From positions 1-19,548 of the forward strand of contig JAJAYU010000173.1 in the NCBI GenBank assembly GCA_026786125.1: 19,548 nucleotides of DNA. Direction: 5' to 3'. The translations under genes were made by a program, and so were the position numbers. A model generated the notes under the pieces. It had not been told where the DNA came from and ran no database searches. It saw nothing but the letters and a program-made list of their open reading frames with translations. Within the stretch, counting starts at the first letter, position 1, and each line of letters starts with the position of its first letter. Origin of the DNA: Chamaesiphon sp. GTDB lineage: Bacteria; Cyanobacteriota; Cyanobacteriia; Cyanobacteriales; Chamaesiphonaceae. Shown here piece after piece: positions 7,380 through 19,012 of this stretch.

Positions 7380-8723
7380 ATGTCGTTAAATATTCAAACT
7401 GTTTCAAGTTCTGCTCGTCAAATTGCTACTAAATTAGGTATTACGAAATTCGATTTATCTGGTTCTACAGTTGATGAAACCAGCGTCCATGTGGACAAAG
7501 GTGAACAGAAGCAAGTCAAGGCTTCTAATCGGGCTGGAATTACCGTGCGGGTATGGAATCAAGAAAATACTGTCGGGATTACCAGTACCACTAATATCGA
7601 TGACATCGGATTGGAGCTTGCGCTCAAGACTGCTTATGAAGCTAGCTTCTTTGGTATCAAAGAACATGCGCCAGATTTTAGTCCTGAAGCGACTGCAACC
7701 ATCGCCGAAATTAAGGTAGAATCGGGCGAAGCTGCTACAGTACCTCAGTTAATTGAAAGTTTGATTGCGGCGGAACGGAAATTATTGGATACCCATGAAG
7801 CGATCGAAAGTGTGCCTTACAATGGTTTGGCACAACGATCAATGAGTCAGTTTTATCTCAATAGTGATGGCGCAATTCGCAGTGATTCACATTCGATTAC
7901 TTCGATCTATCTGTATACAAAGACTGAGCAAGAAGGCAAAAAACCTCGGATGGGCGGAGACGCAGAACTCAGTCATAGTTTTGCCAAATTAGACATCCAA
8001 AAATGTATCGATGAAGCAGCAGAGAAAACTATCAGTCATCTCAACTATGAGAAGGTAGCATCAGGTAAATATATGATCGTCTTTTCACCTGATGCCTTCT
8101 TGAGTTTACTTGGGGCATTCTCAAATCTATTCAACGCTCAAAGTATTCTTGACAATCAAAGTTTATCCACACCTGAATCTTTAGGTACACAGATTGCTTC
8201 TCCATTATTATCAGTTGCTGATGACGCACTGCATCCCCGTAACATTGGGATGGAGACTTTTGATGGCGAAGGTACTCCGACTCGTCGGATCGATCTGATT
8301 AATAAAGGCACTCTATCTTCCTTCATCCATAGTGCTGGCACAGCAAAACGGATGAATGCTAAACCAACTGGACATGCGAACATGGGATCGAAAATTACTG
8401 TTTCACCCCATTTTTATCATGTCGCTGGTGGCGAAAAAGCAGATGATCAGTATAATCTCGATACGGCTGAAAACGTGATCCTAATTGATGAACTCCAAGC
8501 CCTCCATGCAGGCGTGCAATCCTTACAAGGTTCGTTCTCCTTACCTTTTGATGGTTGGGTAGTGAATAAGGGCGTAAAGACCAGTGTGGAGTCAGCTACG
8601 GTTGCCGGAGACTTTCGTGAATTATTGAATTCGATCGTCTATGTTGATCAAAAGGAAGAGTTCACAAATGGCGGTATCTGTCCACGTATTTGGGTGGAAG
8701 GATTGTCGGTAACAGGAGAATAG
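7380..8723 (+). CDS. pmbA: TldE/PmbA, non-catalytic partner of TldD
   Basis: PmbA (TldE) forms the TldD/TldE protease, in which it lacks the metal site. The 447-residue product has the family length and landmarks: RAGITVRVWNQENTVGITSTTN (about 51-72), GKYMIVFSPDAFLSLLGAF, HPRNIGMETFDGEGTPTRR (about 284-302), the GHANMGSK block, and GWVVNKGVKTSVESATVAGDF near the C-terminus. It has no HExxxH motif, as expected. The ATG at 7380 lacks a Shine-Dalgarno and follows an AATTATC tandem array. Despite the 130-bp spacer it is probably cotranscribed with tldD. It converges with the chemotaxis operon, 27 bp separating it from the CheW-like stop codon. Confidence 0.94.
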   Translation: MSLNIQTVSSSARQIATKLGITKFDLSGSTVDETSVHVDKGEQKQVKASNRAGITVRVWNQENTVGITSTTNIDDIGLELALKTAYEASFFGIKEHAPDFSPEATATIAEIKVESGEAATVPQLIESLIAAERKLLDTHEAIESVPYNGLAQRSMSQFYLNSDGAIRSDSHSITSIYLYTKTEQEGKKPRMGGDAELSHSFAKLDIQKCIDEAAEKTISHLNYEKVASGKYMIVFSPDAFLSLLGAFSNLFNAQSILDNQSLSTPESLGTQIASPLLSVADDALHPRNIGMETFDGEGTPTRRIDLINKGTLSSFIHSAGTAKRMNAKPTGHANMGSKITVSPHFYHVAGGEKADDQYNLDTAENVILIDELQALHAGVQSLQGSFSLPFDGWVVNKGVKTSVESATVAGDFRELLNSIVYVDQKEEFTNGGICPRIWVEGLSVTGE

Positions 8724-8750: not shown

Positions 8751-9176
8751 CTATTCCAAAATGAAGATGGTTAATTCACTATTACCGATCGAAGTCATCG
8801 CAATATGACTGGCAATACCGAGGGGATTATTCGTGCGAAATTCAGGGGGTAGAATCCGAATTTGATCGAGTGGGATCGAGATGAGTGTGGGCGTGGTATC
8901 GATCGGAATCCCAGCTAATCTATCTCCCGTGACAATAACCATTGCAGTAGGATTGACGATCGAGGTACCAAATAATCGATGATGGAGATCGAGGATTTCG
9001 ATACCTGCGTTGATCTTTAAGTCTCGATCAAGATTAGTTTTATTCACTACTCGATCGATCTTAGTCATCGGGATACCAAAGCTGACTTCACCCAGATTGA
9101 AGACGATTAATTTGATCGTTTCTTCAATTTTATTGGGTGTTTCAGTCCATTTATTTGAGATAGTATTTGTAAACAT
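8751..9176 (-). CDS. Second CheW-like adaptor, last gene of the pix operon
   Basis: A single CheW domain: IKLIVFNLGEVSFGIPMTKI begins the fold at about residue 20, followed by EILDLHHRLFG, VIVTGDRLAGIPIDT and the tail ILPPEFRTNN. CheW domains tie chemoreceptors to CheA. It is the last gene of the run, directly after pixL, in addition to the CheW of pixI. The start is uncertain. The open frame reaches a TTG at 9218, with ATGs at 9206 and 9176. I chose 9176 (141 residues) because the stretch before it (9178-9198) is the same gggaatagggg spacer repeat that precedes other starts in this operon, and the extra residues PDLSPIPFF look like translated spacer. Whether it acts with PixL or replaces PixI is unknown. 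Confidence 0.82.
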   Translation of the reverse strand: MFTNTISNKWTETPNKIEETIKLIVFNLGEVSFGIPMTKIDRVVNKTNLDRDLKINAGIEILDLHHRLFGTSIVNPTAMVIVTGDRLAGIPIDTTPTLISIPLDQIRILPPEFRTNNPLGIASHIAMTSIGNSELTIFILE

Positions 9177-9220
9177 GAAAAAGGGAATAGGGGAGAGGTC
9201 TGGCATTGCCAATTTCAAGG

Positions 9221-12200
9221 CTATTTATTAGTGATAATTTTATTGATCGAACTGATGAAATCTTGCTCGACATAGGGTTTGATAAAGTAATCAACCGCAC
9301 CTAAATGTGCGGCAAATTGACGATGTTTAATATTGCTGCGGGATGTGAGCATGACGACGGGAATATGGGTGAGAGTTTGATCTTGACGATAGATATTGAG
9401 AAATTCAAATCCATTCATAATCGGCATTTCTACATCGCAAACTACTAATTCGATCTCGTTGACTTTTTGGCGAAGAATTTGGAGTGCTTCTTGTCCATCT
9501 TTGGCTTGGAATGAAAGATAGCCAAATTTTTCGAGGGTGAGACAGAGACTTTGACGAGTGGTGATCGAATCATCAACGACGAGGATTGATTTGCTCGAAC
9601 TTATGGGAGCGGCTGCGATGGGTTTGAGTGGGTAGATCTGGCGTTCAACTAGTACCTGAATTAGATTGTGGGGATCGAGAACGGGGAGGATAATTCCATC
9701 GCCGAGAATTGTACAGCCATAGCTATAACTAGGTGGTTTAATTGCTTTGCCAAAGGGCTTGATTGTTAGCTCTTGCTCGGTGATTAATAGATCGATCTCT
9801 AGGGCGATAATTCGATTGGCTCTGCGGATCAGTAATAGGGGTGGGAGCCAATCGGCAGGATTATCAGCACTACTTTTGAGGGTATGGGAAATAGTGCGTT
9901 CGGGGACGGGAATCGAGTAGGTGAGCAAATCGGCAAGTTTGTAAACTGGGATAGTTAGATTTTGCCAGTGGAACACCTGTTGATTGTTTTGCTGTGATAA
10001 TTGGGTTGGAGTTGGTACGACGATTTTTTGGATGCTGTCGGCAGGGAAGGCATAGACAGCATTCCCAACTTGACAGATCATTAATTGGGCGATCGTCAGT
10101 GTGAGCGGGATCCGGAGGGTGAAGGTGGTACCTTGCCCGATTTGAGAAACGATCGAGACAGTCCCTTTGGTGGATTCAATTTGCGCTTTGACGATATCCA
10201 AGCCCATGCCACGTCCCGATAATTTGGTGATTTGATCAGCGGTAGAAAATCCTGGGGTGAAGAGTAAATCGAACAGTTGCTCCCTTGTGGCAATCGCCGC
10301 CTCTGCGGTAGTGAGTAATTCCAGCCCAATCGCTTTGGATCTAACCTTACAAAGATCGATGCCGCCTCCATCATCGGTAATCTCGATCACGGTTTGACTA
10401 CCTTGATGATAGGCGGTAATTTCGATCAAGCCGCGTTCGGGCTTGCCCATTGCTTGACGGGTCGCTGGGAGGTCGATACCGTGGTCAAAAGCATTGCGGA
10501 GCAAGTGGACGAGGGGATCGAGTAGTTTGTCGATCACAGCGCGATCTACGAGGACTCCAGCTCCTGTGATTTTCAGATCGACGGGCTTGTTGAACTTGAT
10601 CGAGAGATCGTGGAGGGTACGGGGGAAACGATTGAGAATTTCGCCCAAAGGCAACATCCGCGCCCACATCAGATCGTCGCGGAGATAGGAGATCTGTTGT
10701 TTTTGCCGATCAATCTGGCTGTTTGATTGAGTCGTAAATAGAGCTAAATCTTCAATTTGTTCTTCGATTTGGGCGATTTGTTTGATCGTTGCCTGGGCGA
10801 TCTGATGGATCTCGCTATAGCGATCGAGTTCGAGTAGATCGAATTGGTGGTCAAGATCTTGACTCAGTGCCAGTTCTGGCTCTGGTTTGTGACCCAGGGT
10901 GGGTGAATACTGAGTCGAGATTGCCAACGTATCGGCAAGCTGTTGGAGTCTATCACCAATTGTTTGGAAATTGACACACTTCGATCGCAATTGTTGCAAG
11001 ATATCGGCAGATTGTTGATTGGATAGAGCCAATCCATTGCGTTCGATGGCTAGTTCTCCCATCAGATTATTCATCCGCTCCAATCGATCCAGAGTGACTC
11101 TGACGGATAATTGGGGAGTCGAAGTCACCGTGATTTTTCGCGACTTCTTCACTCGAATTGGTTTGATCGCTTTTGCTGGCGGCGCAAATGTGCCAAGGGA
11201 AACTGGTGCAAACTTGTGGAAATTACTAGTAATATCTGACACCATCGCCCGAATCCCTTGCTGTCGCAGATGGAGATCGATCGTCAAATCACTATTAGCA
11301 GGCAGATCAAAGATATCTTCTAGATCGAATCTGAGACTAGATCGATCGGAAATGGAGCGGCTACTAATCTCCCAATTGGGCAAATCAAAGATATCTTCTA
11401 AATCAAACTTAAGACTAGATCCAGCCGCAATCACCGGAATCTGCATTTCGATCTCAGGTAGATCAAAAATATCTTCTAGATCGAATCTAAGACTAGATCC
11501 ATCCGCAGCGACAGGTATGCGGATTTCCAAATTCGGCAGATCAAACATCTCCTCCAAATCAAAACCACATTGCCAGTCCCCCAGTCCCCCAGTCTCCCAG
11601 TCCCCCACACCAACCAAAAGCTCCTCAATCACAAAATCAACCTCAAGATCGATTGATGGTAGTACCACATCAAATGCAGTCTGATAATCAAATGAATTTT
11701 CGAGATCCCATGAATCCTCAGCATTTTCAAGCTGGATTGCCATTAGCTCCGACTGGGATTGTGTGGCTATTAATGAGGCAAACTCTGGAGAGATCGCCCC
11801 GCAATTGGCTCGATCGCCAGTCAAGACAGCTTCCAAGGCACGATAAAAGTCTGCTAGAGCCAAACAACAGATTTCACGAACGCGATCGGGATGACGCTCT
11901 AAAGCGGCAAGAGTGGTATGGGCAAGTACGCCAAATCCTTGTAAATTCGTCAGTGAGGCAATTCCTGTAAATACTTCAGATTGAGCGCGAAACTCCCCAA
12001 CTAAGATACGCCCAGATTCTGGATCGGCGAGTACTCCAGCCAGCCGAGCTAAACTCTGAGCCACATCCACCTCAAAAATCAACCGAGTCACATCAAGATC
12101 GTCCAGATGACCATTGGGAAACCTTTGTCCAGCAATCACAAAATGACCGATCTTTTCATCTAGATCTGCCAGAACTATTTGAGTTTTGATCTGAAATTGG

Positions 12201-12544
12201 GCGGGTAAGGTGTCATGATTAATTTCCGCCAGAATTAGTTTATTCAGGCAATCATAAATCTCAAACAACAGTAATTCTAGCTCCCGATCAAATGGTAATT
12301 CTGGATGATTGAGTACTCGAAAAATATCTTCAAGTTGATGGGCGAGATCCGTAATTGCCGTTAAACCCAAACTTGCCGCACTACCCTTGATCGAATGCGC
12401 TGCTCGCAATAAGTTGTGTACCTTCGTCTCATTCCGCTCAAGTCCCAGCGTCACCAATTCCGTCTCGATCGTCTCCAACATTTTGGGTACTTCCAAGCTG
12501 AATAGCTGATAGACTCGATCTCGTAATTCAGGGTCGATGTACAT
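9221..12544 (-). CDS. pixL: PixL-type CheA hybrid histidine kinase
   Basis: The kinase of the phototaxis pathway. The 1107 residues run: Hpt domain with phospho-His50 in RAAHSIKGSAASLGL; long linker (about 140-475); dimerisation helices (about 480-640, RMNNLMGELAIERN and MWARMLPLGEI); ATPase with N-box HLLRNAFDHG (N684), G1 DDGGGID (724-730) and G2 GRGMGLDIV (777-785); CheW-like domain (about 815-970); and receiver domain with Asp990/Asp991, phospho-Asp1037 in CDVEMP, Thr1067 and Lys1089. This is the domain order of PixL/CheA in cyanobacterial tax operons. The linker bears a 26-residue tandem repeat and a stretch encoded by spacer-like DNA. It lies 120 bp after pixJ and 44 bp before the second CheW gene. 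No Shine-Dalgarno is present; the ATG follows a C/T-rich tract. Confidence 0.94.
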   Translation of the reverse strand: MYIDPELRDRVYQLFSLEVPKMLETIETELVTLGLERNETKVHNLLRAAHSIKGSAASLGLTAITDLAHQLEDIFRVLNHPELPFDRELELLLFEIYDCLNKLILAEINHDTLPAQFQIKTQIVLADLDEKIGHFVIAGQRFPNGHLDDLDVTRLIFEVDVAQSLARLAGVLADPESGRILVGEFRAQSEVFTGIASLTNLQGFGVLAHTTLAALERHPDRVREICCLALADFYRALEAVLTGDRANCGAISPEFASLIATQSQSELMAIQLENAEDSWDLENSFDYQTAFDVVLPSIDLEVDFVIEELLVGVGDWETGGLGDWQCGFDLEEMFDLPNLEIRIPVAADGSSLRFDLEDIFDLPEIEMQIPVIAAGSSLKFDLEDIFDLPNWEISSRSISDRSSLRFDLEDIFDLPANSDLTIDLHLRQQGIRAMVSDITSNFHKFAPVSLGTFAPPAKAIKPIRVKKSRKITVTSTPQLSVRVTLDRLERMNNLMGELAIERNGLALSNQQSADILQQLRSKCVNFQTIGDRLQQLADTLAISTQYSPTLGHKPEPELALSQDLDHQFDLLELDRYSEIHQIAQATIKQIAQIEEQIEDLALFTTQSNSQIDRQKQQISYLRDDLMWARMLPLGEILNRFPRTLHDLSIKFNKPVDLKITGAGVLVDRAVIDKLLDPLVHLLRNAFDHGIDLPATRQAMGKPERGLIEITAYHQGSQTVIEITDDGGGIDLCKVRSKAIGLELLTTAEAAIATREQLFDLLFTPGFSTADQITKLSGRGMGLDIVKAQIESTKGTVSIVSQIGQGTTFTLRIPLTLTIAQLMICQVGNAVYAFPADSIQKIVVPTPTQLSQQNNQQVFHWQNLTIPVYKLADLLTYSIPVPERTISHTLKSSADNPADWLPPLLLIRRANRIIALEIDLLITEQELTIKPFGKAIKPPSYSYGCTILGDGIILPVLDPHNLIQVLVERQIYPLKPIAAAPISSSKSILVVDDSITTRQSLCLTLEKFGYLSFQAKDGQEALQILRQKVNEIELVVCDVEMPIMNGFEFLNIYRQDQTLTHIPVVMLTSRSNIKHRQFAAHLGAVDYFIKPYVEQDFISSINKIITNK
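11285..11563 (-). repeat. 78-bp tandem repeat inside pixL (26-residue units)
   Basis: PixL residues 328-353, 354-379 and 380-405 are full units, and 406-420 is a partial fourth. Each starts FDLE[ED][MI]FDLP and the full units end near SSL[RK]. The spacing is exactly 26 residues, and the DNA copies are nearly identical over the first 30 or so bases, which suggests recent duplication. The unit is acidic and amphipathic and could be a repeated docking peptide. Confidence 0.9.
11567..11611. repeat. Minisatellite inside pixL resembling intergenic spacer repeats
   Basis: On the plus strand, repeated cccccagt/ctcccagt units (minus strand: gggagactgggggactggg) occupy about 11573-11608 and encode PixL residues 313-326, VGDWETGGLGDWQC. 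The same gggagactggg word occurs between genes at 16905-16924 and 19141-19163, so a spacer-type repeat appears to have been accepted in frame in the linker. Confidence 0.75.
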
Positions 12545-12664: not shown

Positions 12665-15600
12665 CTAAATCTTAAACTGACCAATATTCGTCTGTAGCTC
12701 CTGAGCTAGCTTGAGCAGATCTTGGAAGGAGGCTTGGACGTTATCGGCGCGGGAGGAGGTTTTGGTGGCGATGGTGGAGACTCGATCAATACTTTGGGTG
12801 ACTTGGACTGAGTTATCAGCTTGGATCAGGGCGGCTTGGGCGATGGCTTCGACTAGTTGACCGATTTTGGCACCAATGGCGGTGATTCGATCGAGACTGG
12901 CGCGGGTGTCATCGACTAGCTTGGTACCGATGATGACTTGCTCCGTACCTGCTTCCATTGCCATGACTACTTCACTGGTTTGCGCCTGAATACTAGCGAC
13001 TAGAGTTTCAATTTCTCCGGTGGCGGTGGCGGATTGGCGGGCAAGGGAGCGGACTTCTTCAGCAACTACCGCAAATCCTCGTCCTTCTTCACCCGCCCGT
13101 GCTGCTTCAATACTGGCATTGAGGGCGAGCAGGTTGGTTTGGGCGGCGAAGTTGCTAATGAGGTTGACAACTTTGGAGATTTTTTGGGAAGATTCACCCA
13201 GTCGTTTAACTTTTTTGGCGGTTTCAGCAACTGTATTCCGAATCGTCAGAATCCCTTCTACCGCTAGGTTCATCGCAGCATCCCCAGCTTGGACAAGTTG
13301 AGCTGATTCCATCACAGCGGATTCGGCAATCAGGGCATTGTTTACAACCAGATTGATCGATCCAGCCATATCCCGCAAGCGTTTGAGGGCGGAACCGATA
13401 TCGTCAGATTGTTGGAGAGCCTCGATCGATAGTTCGGCAACGGAGATCTCGTTGAGAGTGGTGGTATTAACTACTTGCTGGGAGACATTTCGGACACTGC
13501 TTACTAGTAGCCGCAAACTCTCGACGGTAGAATTGTATGAGTCAGCGATCGTCCCAATTTCATCTTCAGTAACGTGGGCACGAATCGTCAGATCGCCTTG
13601 ACTAATCCGATCAACTTGAATCAGCAGTTCCCAGGCATTTTTCTGGAGAGCTTGTCTAGCGGCTTGTTGGCTCTCAGCATATTGGAATTGTTGCAAATTG
13701 GCAAGTTCTAGTTGGCGGACTAATTGTGATTGACTGAGGGCACCATTGAGTTGGACAGCTAGTTGCAACATCAAATCGATTTCTGACTGCTGCCACTCCC
13801 GCGTGCGCCGACACATGGTGCCACTAAATAATCCAAAGAATTTGTTATTAACAATAATTGGGGTGGTAATAATTGCCTTAATATTAATTGCTTGTAAGTG
13901 TGAAATCAGTGTGGGGCTAAATTCTGAGTGTTCGAGATCGTTAATCTGAATAAACGAACCCTCGGCATAGCCATTAGCCAAAATTTCAAACATATCCTCC
14001 GCTGGAATCACCGAATTCAACGCTGAAAATTCACCCGCACTGATCGCTTCGGCAATAATTTTGCCTGCACCTTCGCCATAGTTATCAACGACTAACATAC
14101 TCGCTCGATCAAGTCCCAATACCTTGAGCATTTCTGGTAGAGCCAAATTGAGCATCTCGGTTTCATCATCAACAAAACCCCTGCCTGGTAGAATCGATTG
14201 GCGCAGTTTGAGGGTCATCTCTGAGAGCATTTGCGATCGGTTAGCAGTTGCTTCTCGTTCCTCAATCAGCGATGCTTGGGTGAATGCGATTGCCAGTTGA
14301 CTCCCTAATTGCTTGAATAAATCAATTTCTGATGGTTGCCAGACACGGGGTTCATGGCATTGATGCCCGATTAATAACCCAAATAAGCGATCGTCGATCA
14401 TAATCGGTACAACCAAATTTGCCCGAACCTGAACATCTACCATCATCTGAATATGGCAATCAGTTAAACCAGCCTGGTGAATATCTGCAAATGCTATAAA
14501 TTTTCCTTGGTCATAGCCAGCATCCTTGATACAGCAATCATCAATTTGCCGATCAATAATCGATAATTTCCCTTCAGCAACTGATTCGGCTGTAATTCTA
14601 CCATTAAAATCTGCATCTAGTTCAAACACGATGGCTCGATCAAGATCCAAGGCATGACGGACTAGTTCAACTGCGGTAGCTAAAATATCTTTGCGGTTAA
14701 GTGATTGTCGCAATTGCAGACTAAAATTGGAAATAATCTGCGCTCGATGGGCATCATCTTCCCGTTGGGTAAATAGTTGTGCCTGACTCAGGACTAGCCC
14801 AATTTGACTAGCAATTTGGGCGATCGATTCGGTAATTGCGGTAGTCCAAACCCTGGGAGCATGACACATATCCCCAATCATAAATCCAACCTGGTTGGTG
14901 TCGATGATAATTGGAATTAGAATACTCGCTCGTGCCTGGATCCGCTGCACGATCTCCCTGCCAGACTGACTCAAGCTGGCTAATTCGGTATCTTCCACGG
15001 TCAAGATCCGAATTTGCTTGGAGCTAGATTTTTCAACAGTTGAGAATATGGATCGATCGACAATATCACCTAAAATCGATAAATTTCCAGGTGCGAGTGA
15101 TTCGGCAACGACCGTCATTTTTGCGTCATTAATAGTATCTAAAAAGACTACTCGATCGAGTTCAAATCCTGTCCGAATACTGCTCAATGCAGTGGCGATA
15201 ATCTGCTCTTGATCGAGTGATTGGCGTAATTCAACCGTAATCTCCGACAGCAAATTATCATAATAAATCTTGGCGGCGCGGTGTTCGATCGATCGGCTCC
15301 GCTCCAATACCAAGCCGATTTTACTAGCAACAGCCGTAAATTTATCAACTATTGATTGCGGCCATTGGCGATGTTCCTTGCACATGTGTCCAACGACTAA
15401 GCCTAGCAATTGACCTTCCGCGAACATCGGTGCTATCAGTCTCGCCCGAATCTGGAAATTTTCTAGCAGGGTAATATCATCCCCCTGGAGTCCACCAGCA
15501 TCATCTAGATGATAAATATCGGAAATCTGATCGGAACTGTGATGATTTTTGCCAATTTCATATTCTAGATACTGGCTCATCATCACCTCCGCCAAGGGGA

Positions 15601-16537
15601 TACAACCTGGTTCCAGTGCGACAGCGGCAAATTGCCATCCGCCAAGATCGGTGAAACTCAAGACCATCAATCGATCAAGCTGAAATTCTTGGCGAATACT
15701 TTCCACCGCTCGATCGAGTAAATGTGCCAATTCCCCTGGCTCATGCTGCTGAAGGGCTTGGGACAACATATTTGTCCGCTGCAATTCTACCGATTGGAGA
15801 TTCCAAGTCCCGATCCGCTCGACCGCCAGCCTTATCTGCTGGGCTGTTTGGGTACAAAAAGACATTTCCCAAGATTGCCACTGTCTGACCCGACTACACT
15901 GCTGAATTGATACCAATCCTACTAGTTCTTTACCTGCCAAAATTGGTACAGAAATTGTCGATTTCGTTTGCATCTGGGCAAACAGATCCCGACGACGGGG
16001 GCTAAGTTGCGCCTGTTTTAGATCCGATATTTCTGAGCTTTGTCCCTGCTGATAACGCTCTAATTCAACTGGAGACTCGGCAAAATAGATTTGCCCCACT
16101 GGAGTCCCCAGGATTGACTGATAACCCGATCCGACTGTTTCGGCGATGGCGACAGCATTACCATCCAGACTACAGCGATAAATCACCACTCGATCGACTT
16201 TGAGGATTTTGGCAATCCCGATCGCCCCTAGATTGTATACTTGGAGACTATCTAATGATTCCTGTGATGTCAGGGCGATTTTACCAAACAACTTATTGGC
16301 TTGGGCTGCTAATTGCTGCTGTTGGAGCGTCCGATTAAAATTAGCCACTAACTGATTGAAGCTATCGGAAATCTGTTGAATCTCGGCACTCTCACATGGT
16401 TCTAATTGCACCGAAAGATCGCCATTAGCTGCTTGAGTGATTTTGGAAGTTACTTGTTTGAGTGAGCTGGAGAGTTCTCGCACTATCCATATTGCCACAC
16501 CAAGATTGACAAAAGCCATTGACAACAAAATCAGCAC
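12665..16537 (-). CDS. pixJ: PixJ-type photoreceptor, main part: HAMP, five GAF domains, methyl-accepting domain
   Basis: Phototaxis receptor. From the GTG at 16537 the 1290 residues run: membrane helix (about 1-20); HAMP (about 20-70); GAF1 (90-240); GAF2 (262-413); GAF3 (432-585); GAF4 (605-757); GAF5 (775-935); second HAMP (about 965-1020); and methyl-accepting signalling region with hairpin tip near 1125-1170 ([20 protein letters not shown]). Only GAF4 has the bilin motif Cys694-His695 in LTDCHIQMM; it also has DDCCI (666-670) at the DXCF position. Related PixJ proteins bind phycoviolobilin and sense blue/green light. The reading frame upstream is continuous with the fragment at 16544-16885 except for a single TAG, so this start is a fallback: no Shine-Dalgarno is present, and an ATG at 16519 is an alternative. 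Confidence 0.9.
14267..14725 (-). other. Bilin-binding cyanobacteriochrome GAF domain of PixJ
   Basis: This is GAF4, residues 605-757 counted from the GTG. The canonical bilin-linking Cys694 is encoded at 14456-14458 and its partner His695 at 14453-14455, within [17 protein letters not shown]. Cys668 and Cys669 (14531-14536) follow Asp667; Cys669 aligns with the Cys of the DXCF motif, with Ile in place of Phe. The other four GAF domains have no Cys-His at the matching place. Confidence 0.85.
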
Positions 16538-16543
16538 ATACGT

Positions 16544-16546
16544 CTA
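16544..16546 (-). other. In-frame TAG interrupting pixJ
   Basis: The minus strand reads CAT TGG TAG ACG TAT GTG CTG ATT TTG. The frame before the stop (from the ATG at 16885) and after it (to 12665) is the same, so one base change separates two polypeptides from one 1406-residue receptor. The stop lies in the short loop between the first membrane helix and the second. Confidence 0.92.
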
Positions 16547-16885
16547 CCAATGTTCATCAGATTGTTGATGGTCGCTCTGCTCCGGTTGATGGGTATGGTA
16601 GAAAACTTCCTTTGCCGCGAACAACCCAGTCATGAGCACTGGCAAAACAATAAACGGTAGAATCATTGTGAGAATCTTGCGCTGCAATGTTGGCTGCAAC
16701 CGCTCGCCCACCACCAATGGATTTGATGGCCGCAATTGAGTCAAATTGGGTGTCTCAGTTTCTGCTACCCAAATAAATGAGTCAATCGATGTCGCATCTA
16801 GCAGGGGTGTTTTGGTTTCTTCTAGACTAGTCTCACTGATTGCAGCATCACTTACAGCAGGCTCTTGGCGATCAATAGTATTCAT
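16544..16885 (-). CDS. N-terminal fragment of PixJ (cytoplasmic tail and first membrane helix)
   Basis: A 113-residue product. About 65 hydrophilic, acidic residues (SETSLEETKTPLLDATSIDS) lead into one membrane helix at about 70-93 (ILTMILPFIVLPVLMTGLFA) and a short His/Gln-rich tail ending DEHW. Alone it has no recognisable function. Read through the TAG, it supplies the first helix and the short periplasmic loop expected of a two-helix PixJ receptor, the second helix being [20 protein letters not shown]. The ATG at 16883-16885 follows a C/T-rich tract (gggagactggg repeat on the plus strand). It is either the first half of a broken gene or one of two cistrons; a sequencing error is also possible. 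Confidence 0.8.
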   Translation of the reverse strand: MNTIDRQEPAVSDAAISETSLEETKTPLLDATSIDSFIWVAETETPNLTQLRPSNPLVVGERLQPTLQRKILTMILPFIVLPVLMTGLFAAKEVFYHTHQPEQSDHQQSDEHW

Positions 16886-16904
16886 ATTAGGCTGGGCGGG
16901 GTGA

Positions 16905-16924
16905 GGGGACTGGGAGACTGGGAG
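16905..16924. repeat. gggagactggg spacer repeat between pixI and pixJ
   Basis: The plus strand reads ggggactgggagactgggag inside the 66-bp pixI-pixJ spacer. It is the same repeat family as 19141-19163 and the in-gene copy at 11573-11608. On the coding strand it gives a C/T-rich leader in front of the pixJ ATG. Confidence 0.7.
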
Positions 16925-16951
16925 TAAATGGGTTTCTAAGATGGTGATGGC

Positions 16952-17440
16952 TCAGACATCAGGGTTGAAATTGGCACCAGCGAAGATTGTTTGTCCGTCT
17001 AATCTGAGGAAATTTTCACCACTAGCCGATATCCACAAACCATTTGCCCATTTAGAAAATTCTGGATAAATATTAGCTGGAACGGGAGATTGGATCGAAT
17101 CTAGATCGAACCATTCAATTTCATCAAGTTGATCGACTACTAAACCAACAGTTGTTTGGAGTCGATCTTCAGGCGTAACGCCATTGGCGAGAATAATCGT
17201 CGGCTGAAGGCTCCGACTCTTCCCCCCAGTTTGATTGGCTCCGATCAAGGTTGCTAAATTGACAATCCACAGAATTTCACCCCGCCAATTGTAGATACCC
17301 ATCACAGCGGCTGGTAGATGGGGCATCGGGACAATTCGATCGATCGGAATATTTACCAGCTCGGTGACTAGATCGATCTCCATCAGTGCCATCAGATTGG
17401 ATTGGATCTGAAACCTCAAAAACTGCTGCTGAGTAGACAT
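16952..17440 (-). CDS. pixI: PixI, CheW-like adaptor
   Basis: Single-domain CheW protein, 162 residues, that should join PixJ to PixL. Family blocks are LVTELVNIPIDRIVPMPHLP (about 24-43), VMGIYNWRGEILWIVNLATLIG (about 46-67, matching the CheW core 'N-x-R-G-x-[IV]-[LI]-x-[VL]-x-[DN]-L'), VGLVVDQLDEIEWFD and LWISASGENFLRLDGQTIF. The ATG at 17438-17440 lies 2 bp after the pixH stop, so the two are almost certainly translated from one mRNA. The gene order pixG-pixH-pixI-pixJ-pixL equals the known tax1 type order. The product has no unusual feature. Confidence 0.93.
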   Translation of the reverse strand: MSTQQQFLRFQIQSNLMALMEIDLVTELVNIPIDRIVPMPHLPAAVMGIYNWRGEILWIVNLATLIGANQTGGKSRSLQPTIILANGVTPEDRLQTTVGLVVDQLDEIEWFDLDSIQSPVPANIYPEFSKWANGLWISASGENFLRLDGQTIFAGANFNPDV

Positions 17441-17442
17441 GA

Positions 17443-17805
17443 TTACCGCACCAGTTTTTCAAGTACTTCTAGGAATTTGTGCCGCTCAACTGGTTTTGCC
17501 AGATAGAAGTCAGCTCCCTGTTTCAATCCCCAAAATCGATCCATGTCGGTGTTTTTGGTCGAACACATCACCACGGGAATCTTTTTGGTATCGGTTTGAG
17601 TTTTGATCGTCCGACAAATCTCAAATCCGCTCCGCCCTGGTAAAACAATATCGAGAAACACAATATCTGGCTGATGAGTATTGAGATAAGTCAATGCATC
17701 TTCACCACTGTTTGCTGAGATGACTAACCAGCCCAGGGTTTCTAAGTAGCTAGTTAAAATCATTAGATCGGTTTGGACATCTTCGACGATTAGTGCAGTT
17801 GACAT
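17443..17805 (-). CDS. pixH: PixH, CheY-like response regulator
   Basis: Stand-alone receiver domain of 120 residues, phosphorylated by the PixL kinase. The acidic pocket is Glu8/Asp9 in LIVEDVQTD, phospho-Asp52 in FLDIVLPGRSG, Ser82/Thr83 in VVMCSTK and Lys104 in LAKPVE. It has no output domain, so it acts by protein contact, in related systems on the pilus motility apparatus. It lies 43 bp after pixG and 2 bp before pixI. The ATG at 17803-17805 is preceded directly by a C/T-rich tract (plus strand aagggataagggatagggga) with no Shine-Dalgarno. Confidence 0.94.
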   Translation of the reverse strand: MSTALIVEDVQTDLMILTSYLETLGWLVISANSGEDALTYLNTHQPDIVFLDIVLPGRSGFEICRTIKTQTDTKKIPVVMCSTKNTDMDRFWGLKQGADFYLAKPVERHKFLEVLEKLVR

Positions 17806-17848: not shown

Positions 17849-19012
17849 TTATTTGGCGATCGGGATTTTGAGGTGTTTTTGGGTAATTTCGAGGACAAAT
17901 TCGGATTGGACTGGTTTAGTGAGAAAATCTGTAGCACCGACGACTCTGGCGCGGACTCGATCGATTGTGCCGTCATTGCCTGTCAAAATCACGATCGGTG
18001 TGTCTTTGAAAGTGCTGATCTTTCGCAGCCGACTACAGATTTCATAACCATTGGCATTGGGCATCACTAGATCGAGGAAGATAATCTGCGGCTTTTTGGC
18101 GATGACAATCGGAATTGCTTTGAGTGAATCCATCACACTGATACACTGAAAACCTGCTTGCTGAAAAATTTGCTCCAATCGATCGCATACAAACGGACTA
18201 TCATCGATACAAACAACTAAGGGTTTAACCATTCCCAGTTTTGCTAGATCGATCGGACTGGCAAAATCAGGCACACTCACTAGTTGCAATGTACAGACCT
18301 GAATTTGAGCTAGAAAAGATTGCCCAATCATCACCGGAGATTTACGTGCTTTGGTCGCAATTTCGCGGATACTTTGTTTACCATTCAATACCTGTTTGAG
18401 CGATTCATAAGCAGATAGGGAAACCATCTGTTGAAACTTAGTAACTGAAACAATGTCGATCGCCAGATCGGGTGAAATATCGACCAATCCTGCCTGCTGC
18501 CATTGCTGTTGCTGTTGGACGGCGATCCCCAATGCTCGATCGATATCAATTAGAATCAGTTGAGGCGCAAGTTGCTTTTCCTCGATCCGTTCGCAGCTAA
18601 CTGCCTTAGCACCAACGATATCAAACAACACCTCCACGATCGTAGTTTGAATCTGCTTAATCAACCCCTCTCGGCTGATTCGTCCCTGATGTGCCCAATT
18701 AACTAATAGATAATATTCCCAGCAGCTCTCTAGCTCGGCGGTTGTCAATGCTGAAATATCTGTAAGCGCGTCGATCCTGACTTGCAAATCCTTGGCAGTA
18801 CTTACGTCTAAACCAGCGATTGTGGTATTCCGCACCCAACGGCGAATTGGATGACTACCCCCAGTTGCATACAAAATGCGACCGAGATAAATGTATAGAG
18901 ACCACTCTTGTCCCAGTGGACTTTTTAGTAAAATACGTCCACTGAAATGTTGGTGCTTGATCTCACTCAACTGAGTCGCCAGAAGATCGAGTGTTATGTA
19001 TTCAGCAACCAT
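17849..19012 (-). CDS. pixG: PixG, PATAN-receiver response regulator
   Basis: A 387-residue PatA-type regulator. An N-terminal PATAN domain (about 5-110) begins FSGRILLKSPLGQEWSLYIY and GRILYATGGSHPIRRWVR; a helical region follows (about 115-245, with REGLIKQIQTTIVEVLFDIV and REIATKARKSPVMIGQSFLA). The C-terminal receiver (about 263-385) has Asp270/Asp271, phospho-Asp314 in FLDLVMPNANG, Thr344 and Lys366 in LTKPV. Proteins of this kind link phototaxis signalling to type IV pili. It is the first gene of the operon; the ATG at 19010-19012 has a purine-rich aagagagaaa stretch upstream. It is divergent from nblA, 461 bp away. Confidence 0.93.
   Translation of the reverse strand: MVAEYITLDLLATQLSEIKHQHFSGRILLKSPLGQEWSLYIYLGRILYATGGSHPIRRWVRNTTIAGLDVSTAKDLQVRIDALTDISALTTAELESCWEYYLLVNWAHQGRISREGLIKQIQTTIVEVLFDIVGAKAVSCERIEEKQLAPQLILIDIDRALGIAVQQQQQWQQAGLVDISPDLAIDIVSVTKFQQMVSLSAYESLKQVLNGKQSIREIATKARKSPVMIGQSFLAQIQVCTLQLVSVPDFASPIDLAKLGMVKPLVVCIDDSPFVCDRLEQIFQQAGFQCISVMDSLKAIPIVIAKKPQIIFLDLVMPNANGYEICSRLRKISTFKDTPIVILTGNDGTIDRVRARVVGATDFLTKPVQSEFVLEITQKHLKIPIAK

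What the first reader, a model, noticed from the sequence alone, without database searches (positions are those of the whole stretch)
16519..16885. pixJ photoreceptor gene split by one in-frame amber codon between its two membrane helices
The ATG-initiated frame at 16885 and the roughly 1290-codon frame ending at 12665 are one frame, interrupted only by TAG at 16544-16546. Before it lies membrane helix 1 with a short loop; after it, T-Y-V-L-I-L-L-S starts helix 2. No other stop or frameshift occurs in over 4 kb, so the lesion is recent, or the two parts are both made (GTG restart three codons on), or the stop is read through, or the base is a sequencing error. A split exactly in the periplasmic loop would allow two subunits to rebuild the receptor. 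Alternatively the receptor loses its helix 1 and topology.
Basis: partly seen in the sequence, partly recalled or inferred. Interest (0 to 1): 0.72.

Follow-up and report, generated by a model that had tools for sequence, protein, structure and literature searches.

The report
One stop codon inside cyanobacterial pixJ
A light-sensing receptor gene of a Chamaesiphon-like cyanobacterium, read from an environmental genome assembly, carries a single stop codon that its close relatives lack, most likely a recent inactivating mutation or a sequence error rather than a new way of building a receptor.

Summary
On the minus strand, 113 codons from ATG 16885, one TAG (16546-16544) and the 1290-codon frame ending at 12665 form one frame with no other stop. 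The stop lies just before membrane helix 2. The gene is a pixJ-type photoreceptor in a pixGHIJL-like cluster.

The window is a contig of an incomplete, fragmented genome related to Chamaesiphon. In 7 of 7 same-genus copies covering the place the frame is open: one broken gene, not two genes. Both parts show purifying selection and no further lesion, so the stop is recent or not real.

TAG is an ordinary terminator here, release factor 1 is present and none of 27 tRNA matches has a CUA anticodon, so recoding is unsupported. Among 78 stretches compared with the nearest relative, only pixJ has a stop clearly inside the coding part. Reads were not available, so a recent nonsense allele (favoured) and a consensus error cannot be separated.

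The parts
16547..16885 (-). 5' part of pixJ: 113 codons, N-terminal stretch, membrane helix 1 and most of the loop
   Evidence: 93% identical to L011, 69% to L013
16544..16546 (-). in-frame TAG; the aligned column holds Leu (1), Trp (4), Gln (1) or a gap (1) in seven same-genus relatives
12665..16543 (-). 3' part of pixJ: rest of loop, helix 2, HAMP (two Pfam stretches), four scored GAF stretches, one with the Cys-His motif (read-through position 810), MCP signalling domain; ends at TAG
16535..16537 (-).
16952..17440 (-). pixI-like CheW
17443..17805 (-). pixH-like response regulator
17849..19012 (-). pixG-like DUF4388 plus response regulator
9221..12544 (-). pixL-like CheA hybrid kinase
8751..9218 (-). 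CheW-like gene after pixL, Pfam score below the curated cut-off

Best explanation
This is one pixJ gene carrying a recent nonsense mutation. Ribosomes should stop at the TAG through release factor 1 and make a 113-residue peptide with helix 1 only. The light-sensing, HAMP and signalling parts would then be made little or not at all, perhaps at a low level from the GTG three codons on, which would give a receptor with one helix. The likely result is loss or strong reduction of PixJ-dependent phototaxis in the sampled cells. Shown: the stop, the open frame in relatives, past purifying selection, and TAG as a common terminator. Inferred: that the base is real, and the effect on the cell.
For: Frame open in 7 of 7 same-genus copies covering the place. 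Codon changes since the split from G008 (replacement/silent), G000 branch against G008 branch: 14/55 and 34/44 with G003 as outgroup, 14/35 and 13/44 with G004, 12/37 and 17/38 with G005; in the 5' part the G000 branch has 0 replacements with each outgroup, but only 6, 1 and 1 silent changes. Pairwise dN/dS to G008 is 0.175 before the stop and 0.177 after it. In 78 G008-to-G000 stretches (24,229 codons) there are 5 stops; four lie within the first 26 aligned positions of a stop-to-stop query frame, and only the pixJ stop is clearly internal. TAG ends 67 of 149 long frames in 60 sampled contigs; prfA is present. Another genus member, G006, also has a broken pixJ frame, so loss of this gene may recur.
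Against: The window is from a fragmented, 77% complete assembly and no reads or second isolate could be examined, so a consensus error is not excluded. The frames of the other cluster genes are whole and pilT is present, so there is no independent sign that phototaxis was given up. Absence of decay fits an error just as well as a recent mutation.
Confidence: 0.6

Rival explanations
1. The TAG is a base-call, consensus or strain-mixture error of the assembly and the organism has an intact pixJ.
For: Fragmented, 77% complete assembly; no decay of either part; no relative shares it; G006, also a metagenome assembly (title of L014), has an isolated frame change in the same gene.
Against: The same assembly is not full of stops: none of the other 77 compared stretches has one clearly inside the coding part, and one frameshift candidate was found in that direction. 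The sample is too small to exclude a single error.
Confidence: 0.27
2. The stop is real but the receptor is still made: by leaky reading of TAG, or by restart at GTG 16537 giving a one-helix receptor, or by both parts joining as two subunits.
For: The stop sits at the end of a loop that varies in length and sequence among relatives, where an inserted residue could be tolerated; the GTG lies 6 bases after the stop, close enough for restart; inference: helix 2 followed by charged residues could insert on its own.
Against: None of 7 relatives has a stop there; TAG is a common terminator, also of the pixJ and pixL frames; prfA is present; none of 27 tRNA matches has a CUA anticodon, though the genome is incomplete; no good ribosome-binding sequence before the GTG by eye.
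Confidence: 0.11
3. Two ancestral separate genes, with the relatives being fusions.
For: None found.
Against: The 7 same-genus copies covering the site are open there, and no extra sequence separates the parts in the window.
Confidence: 0.02

Closest known systems
PixJ (TaxD1) phototaxis receptors of the pixGHIJL cluster of Synechocystis and relatives (names and cluster recalled)
   Same: Two N-terminal helices, HAMP, GAF repeat with a Cys-His cyanobacteriochrome motif, MCP signalling domain; neighbours in the order response regulator with DUF4388, response regulator, CheW, receptor, CheA
   Different: One in-frame TAG before helix 2
Naturally occurring nonsense alleles (ordinary pseudogenes in the making)
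   Same: Single stop, no other lesion seen, relatives open
   Different: Reality of the base unproven
Stop-codon recoding (amber suppression or read-through)
   Same: An in-frame TAG in a frame otherwise under selection
   Different: No suppressor tRNA seen, prfA present, TAG widely used as terminator, not conserved

Membership tests
PixJ-type cyanobacteriochrome chemoreceptor | MCP signalling domain at the C-terminus | tested here: met
   PF00015, 138.8 bits, residues 1100-1256 of the 3' part
PixJ-type cyanobacteriochrome chemoreceptor | GAF domain of cyanobacteriochrome type with conserved Cys-His | tested here: met
   Cys-His motif at position 810, found in 8 of 8 same-genus relatives; PDB chains 3vv4, 4fof, 2m7u, 6p58, each named methyl-accepting chemotaxis protein, at E 7.3e-32 or better. 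Pigment binding itself not testable
PixJ-type cyanobacteriochrome chemoreceptor | two N-terminal membrane helices in one chain with the rest | tested here: not met
   both hydrophobic stretches are encoded but the TAG separates them; both are present in the open frame of 7 of 7 same-genus copies covering the site
PixJ-type cyanobacteriochrome chemoreceptor | pixGHIJL gene order | tested here: met
   window order; same genes beside pixJ in L203-L205; the contigs of L206 and L207 end before pixL
Programmed stop read-through or amber recoding | conserved in-frame stop in relatives | tested here: not met
   0 of 7 relatives covering the site
Programmed stop read-through or amber recoding | suppressor tRNA with CUA anticodon | tested here: inconclusive
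   none among 27 tRNA matches, genome 77% complete
Programmed stop read-through or amber recoding | product spanning the stop | not testable with these tools
   needs proteomics
Recent nonsense allele | TAG present in the reads of the population | not testable with these tools
   no reads held

The most novel reading that the evidence does not exclude
The TAG is real and the two products, the helix-1 peptide and a GTG-started one-helix photoreceptor, are both made and reassemble or act apart, so that the receptor's topology or signal is retuned by a single stop.
Probability: 0.04. Interest if true: 0.55.

Novelty: new member of a known kind. Interest (0 to 1): 0.15.

Why it matters
If the base is real it is a natural pixJ loss allele in a genus whose other sampled members mostly keep the receptor, and with the broken copy in G006 it hints that this receptor may be lost repeatedly. 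If it is an error it is a reminder to check single stops in metagenome assemblies. Neither changes what is known about how such receptors work.

Tried and rejected
Recoding of TAG was tested by terminator use, prfA, tRNAs and relatives, and is not supported. Old pseudogene: not supported, no decay on the G000 branch. Two separate genes: contradicted. An assembly riddled with stops: not seen; of the four other stops there, three have a Met at once or within two residues after them, and one (frame matched in L119, position 3) was not resolved further.

In the opposite direction (80 stretches of G000 frames against G008, 24,177 codons) 10 stops were counted in G008; 8 lie in the first 30 aligned positions, two at 39 and 52. 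I did not examine the ten one by one; the one at 52 of 123 is in a frame antisense to the MCP match on C286. The frameshift survey gave one candidate in each direction, not followed up. NCBIfam: the matches shown for three cluster proteins were below their curated cut-offs (the lists for pixL and pixG were cut at 25 of 109 and 25 of 85).

Not examined at the site: 14 of the 18 loci (more distant relatives) and the matches of the order-wide search (30 of 60 genomes with a match, apart from G000 itself). G009 and G010, same family but another genus, gave no match to the 5' GAF part like that of pixJ (best 42% over residues 853-1290) and were not used.

Not obtained: protein database searches failed or were switched off, so copies of the same species elsewhere could not be sought. 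Paper searches and look-ups failed on time; no paper was seen, and statements about PixJ biology, the pixGHIJL names and the source of the PDB chains are recalled.

Full report
Observation. The minus-strand frame from ATG 16885 runs 113 codons to TAG at 16546-16544, then ACG TAT and the GTG at 16537 that opens 1290 codons to TAG at 12667-12665, with no other stop. Hydropathy places helix 1 at residues 71-89 and helix 2 at 117-135 of the read-through frame, with the stop at 114.

What the gene is. The 3' part has HAMP, four scored GAF stretches and an MCP signalling domain. One GAF carries a Cys-His motif and matches solved GAF domains named methyl-accepting chemotaxis protein (3vv4, 4fof, 2m7u, 6p58), some of which I recall as PixJ domains; the best match of all is a dual sensor histidine kinase, 6oap. 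Neighbours are a DUF4388 response regulator, a response regulator, a CheW and a CheA hybrid, in the order recalled for pixGHIJL. The same genes lie beside pixJ in L203, L204 and L205; the contigs of L206 and L207 end before pixL.

Where it lies. The window is contig C173 of G000, 2.73 Mb in 415 contigs, 77% complete. Relatives in genome contigs include three Chamaesiphon records (L012-L014) and an uncultured cyanobacterium, L011, 93% identical.

One gene. Of eight same-genus genomes (G001-G008), seven cover the site; G007 begins further on, at a contig edge. In all seven the frame is open there. The column aligned with the stop holds Leu in G008, Trp in G001, G002, G004 and G005, Gln in G006 and a gap in G003. 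The loop varies in length, so the exact column is uncertain. The 5' part is poorly conserved (30-41% to G001, G004, G005, G006, and no tblastn match in G002 at 1e-8), but in each case it is continuous with the rest.

Age. With G003 as outgroup (1345 codons, 94 unresolved) the G000 branch has 14 replacement and 55 silent changes and the G008 branch 34 and 44. With G004 the counts are 14/35 and 13/44 (132 unresolved of 1330), with G005 12/37 and 17/38 (134 of 1331). Pairwise dN/dS between G000 and G008 is 0.175 in the 5' part (113 codons) and 0.177 in the 3' part (1234 codons). Nothing suggests that either part was free of selection for long; the 5' part is short, so its count is weak.

Is the assembly full of stops? 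From 60 hand-picked contigs plus the window for G000 (474 kb) and 60 plus L011 for G008 (586 kb), 78 stretches could be compared in the direction that shows G000 stops (24,229 codons, median identity 95.8%). Five stops appear. Four lie within the first 26 aligned positions; three of them stand directly before a Met and one was not resolved; the fifth is pixJ. One frameshift candidate appeared in that direction. Such lesions are rare here, but a single error cannot be excluded.

Recoding. TAG ends 67 of 149 closed frames of about 300 or more codons in the 60 G000 contigs (TAA 65, TGA 17; frames counted mechanically, not proven genes), and ends the pixJ and pixL frames in the window. prfA is above its cut-off in G000. 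Of 27 tRNA matches, 25 have a readable anticodon and none is CUA; one has a two-letter anticodon and one was not recognised by ARAGORN. G000 is incomplete, so absence is weak evidence. Restart at GTG 16537 is possible but has no good ribosome-binding sequence by eye; the same GTG is an internal Val codon in 4 of 7 relatives.

A second lesion. In G006 (L014) the pixJ frame changes near residue 998 of the 3' part, before the scored MCP signalling domain. G001 to G005 are open over their whole length; G008 is open as far as its contig goes, and G007 from where its contig starts. So 2 of the 7 copies covered over their full length (G000 to G006) have a lesion, both in fragmented assemblies. pilT is above cut-off in 11 of 11 genomes of the family, so the motility machinery is not obviously lost.

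Verdict. A recent nonsense allele of an ordinary pixJ is the best reading (0.6), a sequence or consensus error next (0.27), a still-made receptor third (0.11). The split-receptor idea is the novel reading and has no positive support.

Noticed in passing
L014 around 7932-7935 (G006): pixJ of another Chamaesiphon assembly has a frame change before the MCP signalling domain, an independent lesion in the same gene.
   Followed up: partly
window 14285-14990 minus strand; L033, L034, L039, L035: The number of Cys-His cyanobacteriochrome motifs found differs in the genus: one in G000, G008, G003, G004, G005, two in G001, G002, G006, G007, so a second pigment site may have been gained or lost.
   Followed up: no
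window 8751-9218: A CheW-like gene with a Pfam score below cut-off follows pixL and is kept in G001, G003, G005 and G007; not one of the recalled pixGHIJL genes.
   Followed up: partly
L013 5542-5629; window 16886-16951: Octamer repeats (TCCCAGTC type) fill the pixI-pixJ spacer in G003; the window spacer has a few copies by eye but no family was reported.
   Followed up: partly
G000 contig C69:1951-2099 (L079, L081): Tandem tRNA-Ile(TAT) and a tRNA-like gene with an odd anticodon loop (two-letter anticodon by ARAGORN).
   Followed up: no
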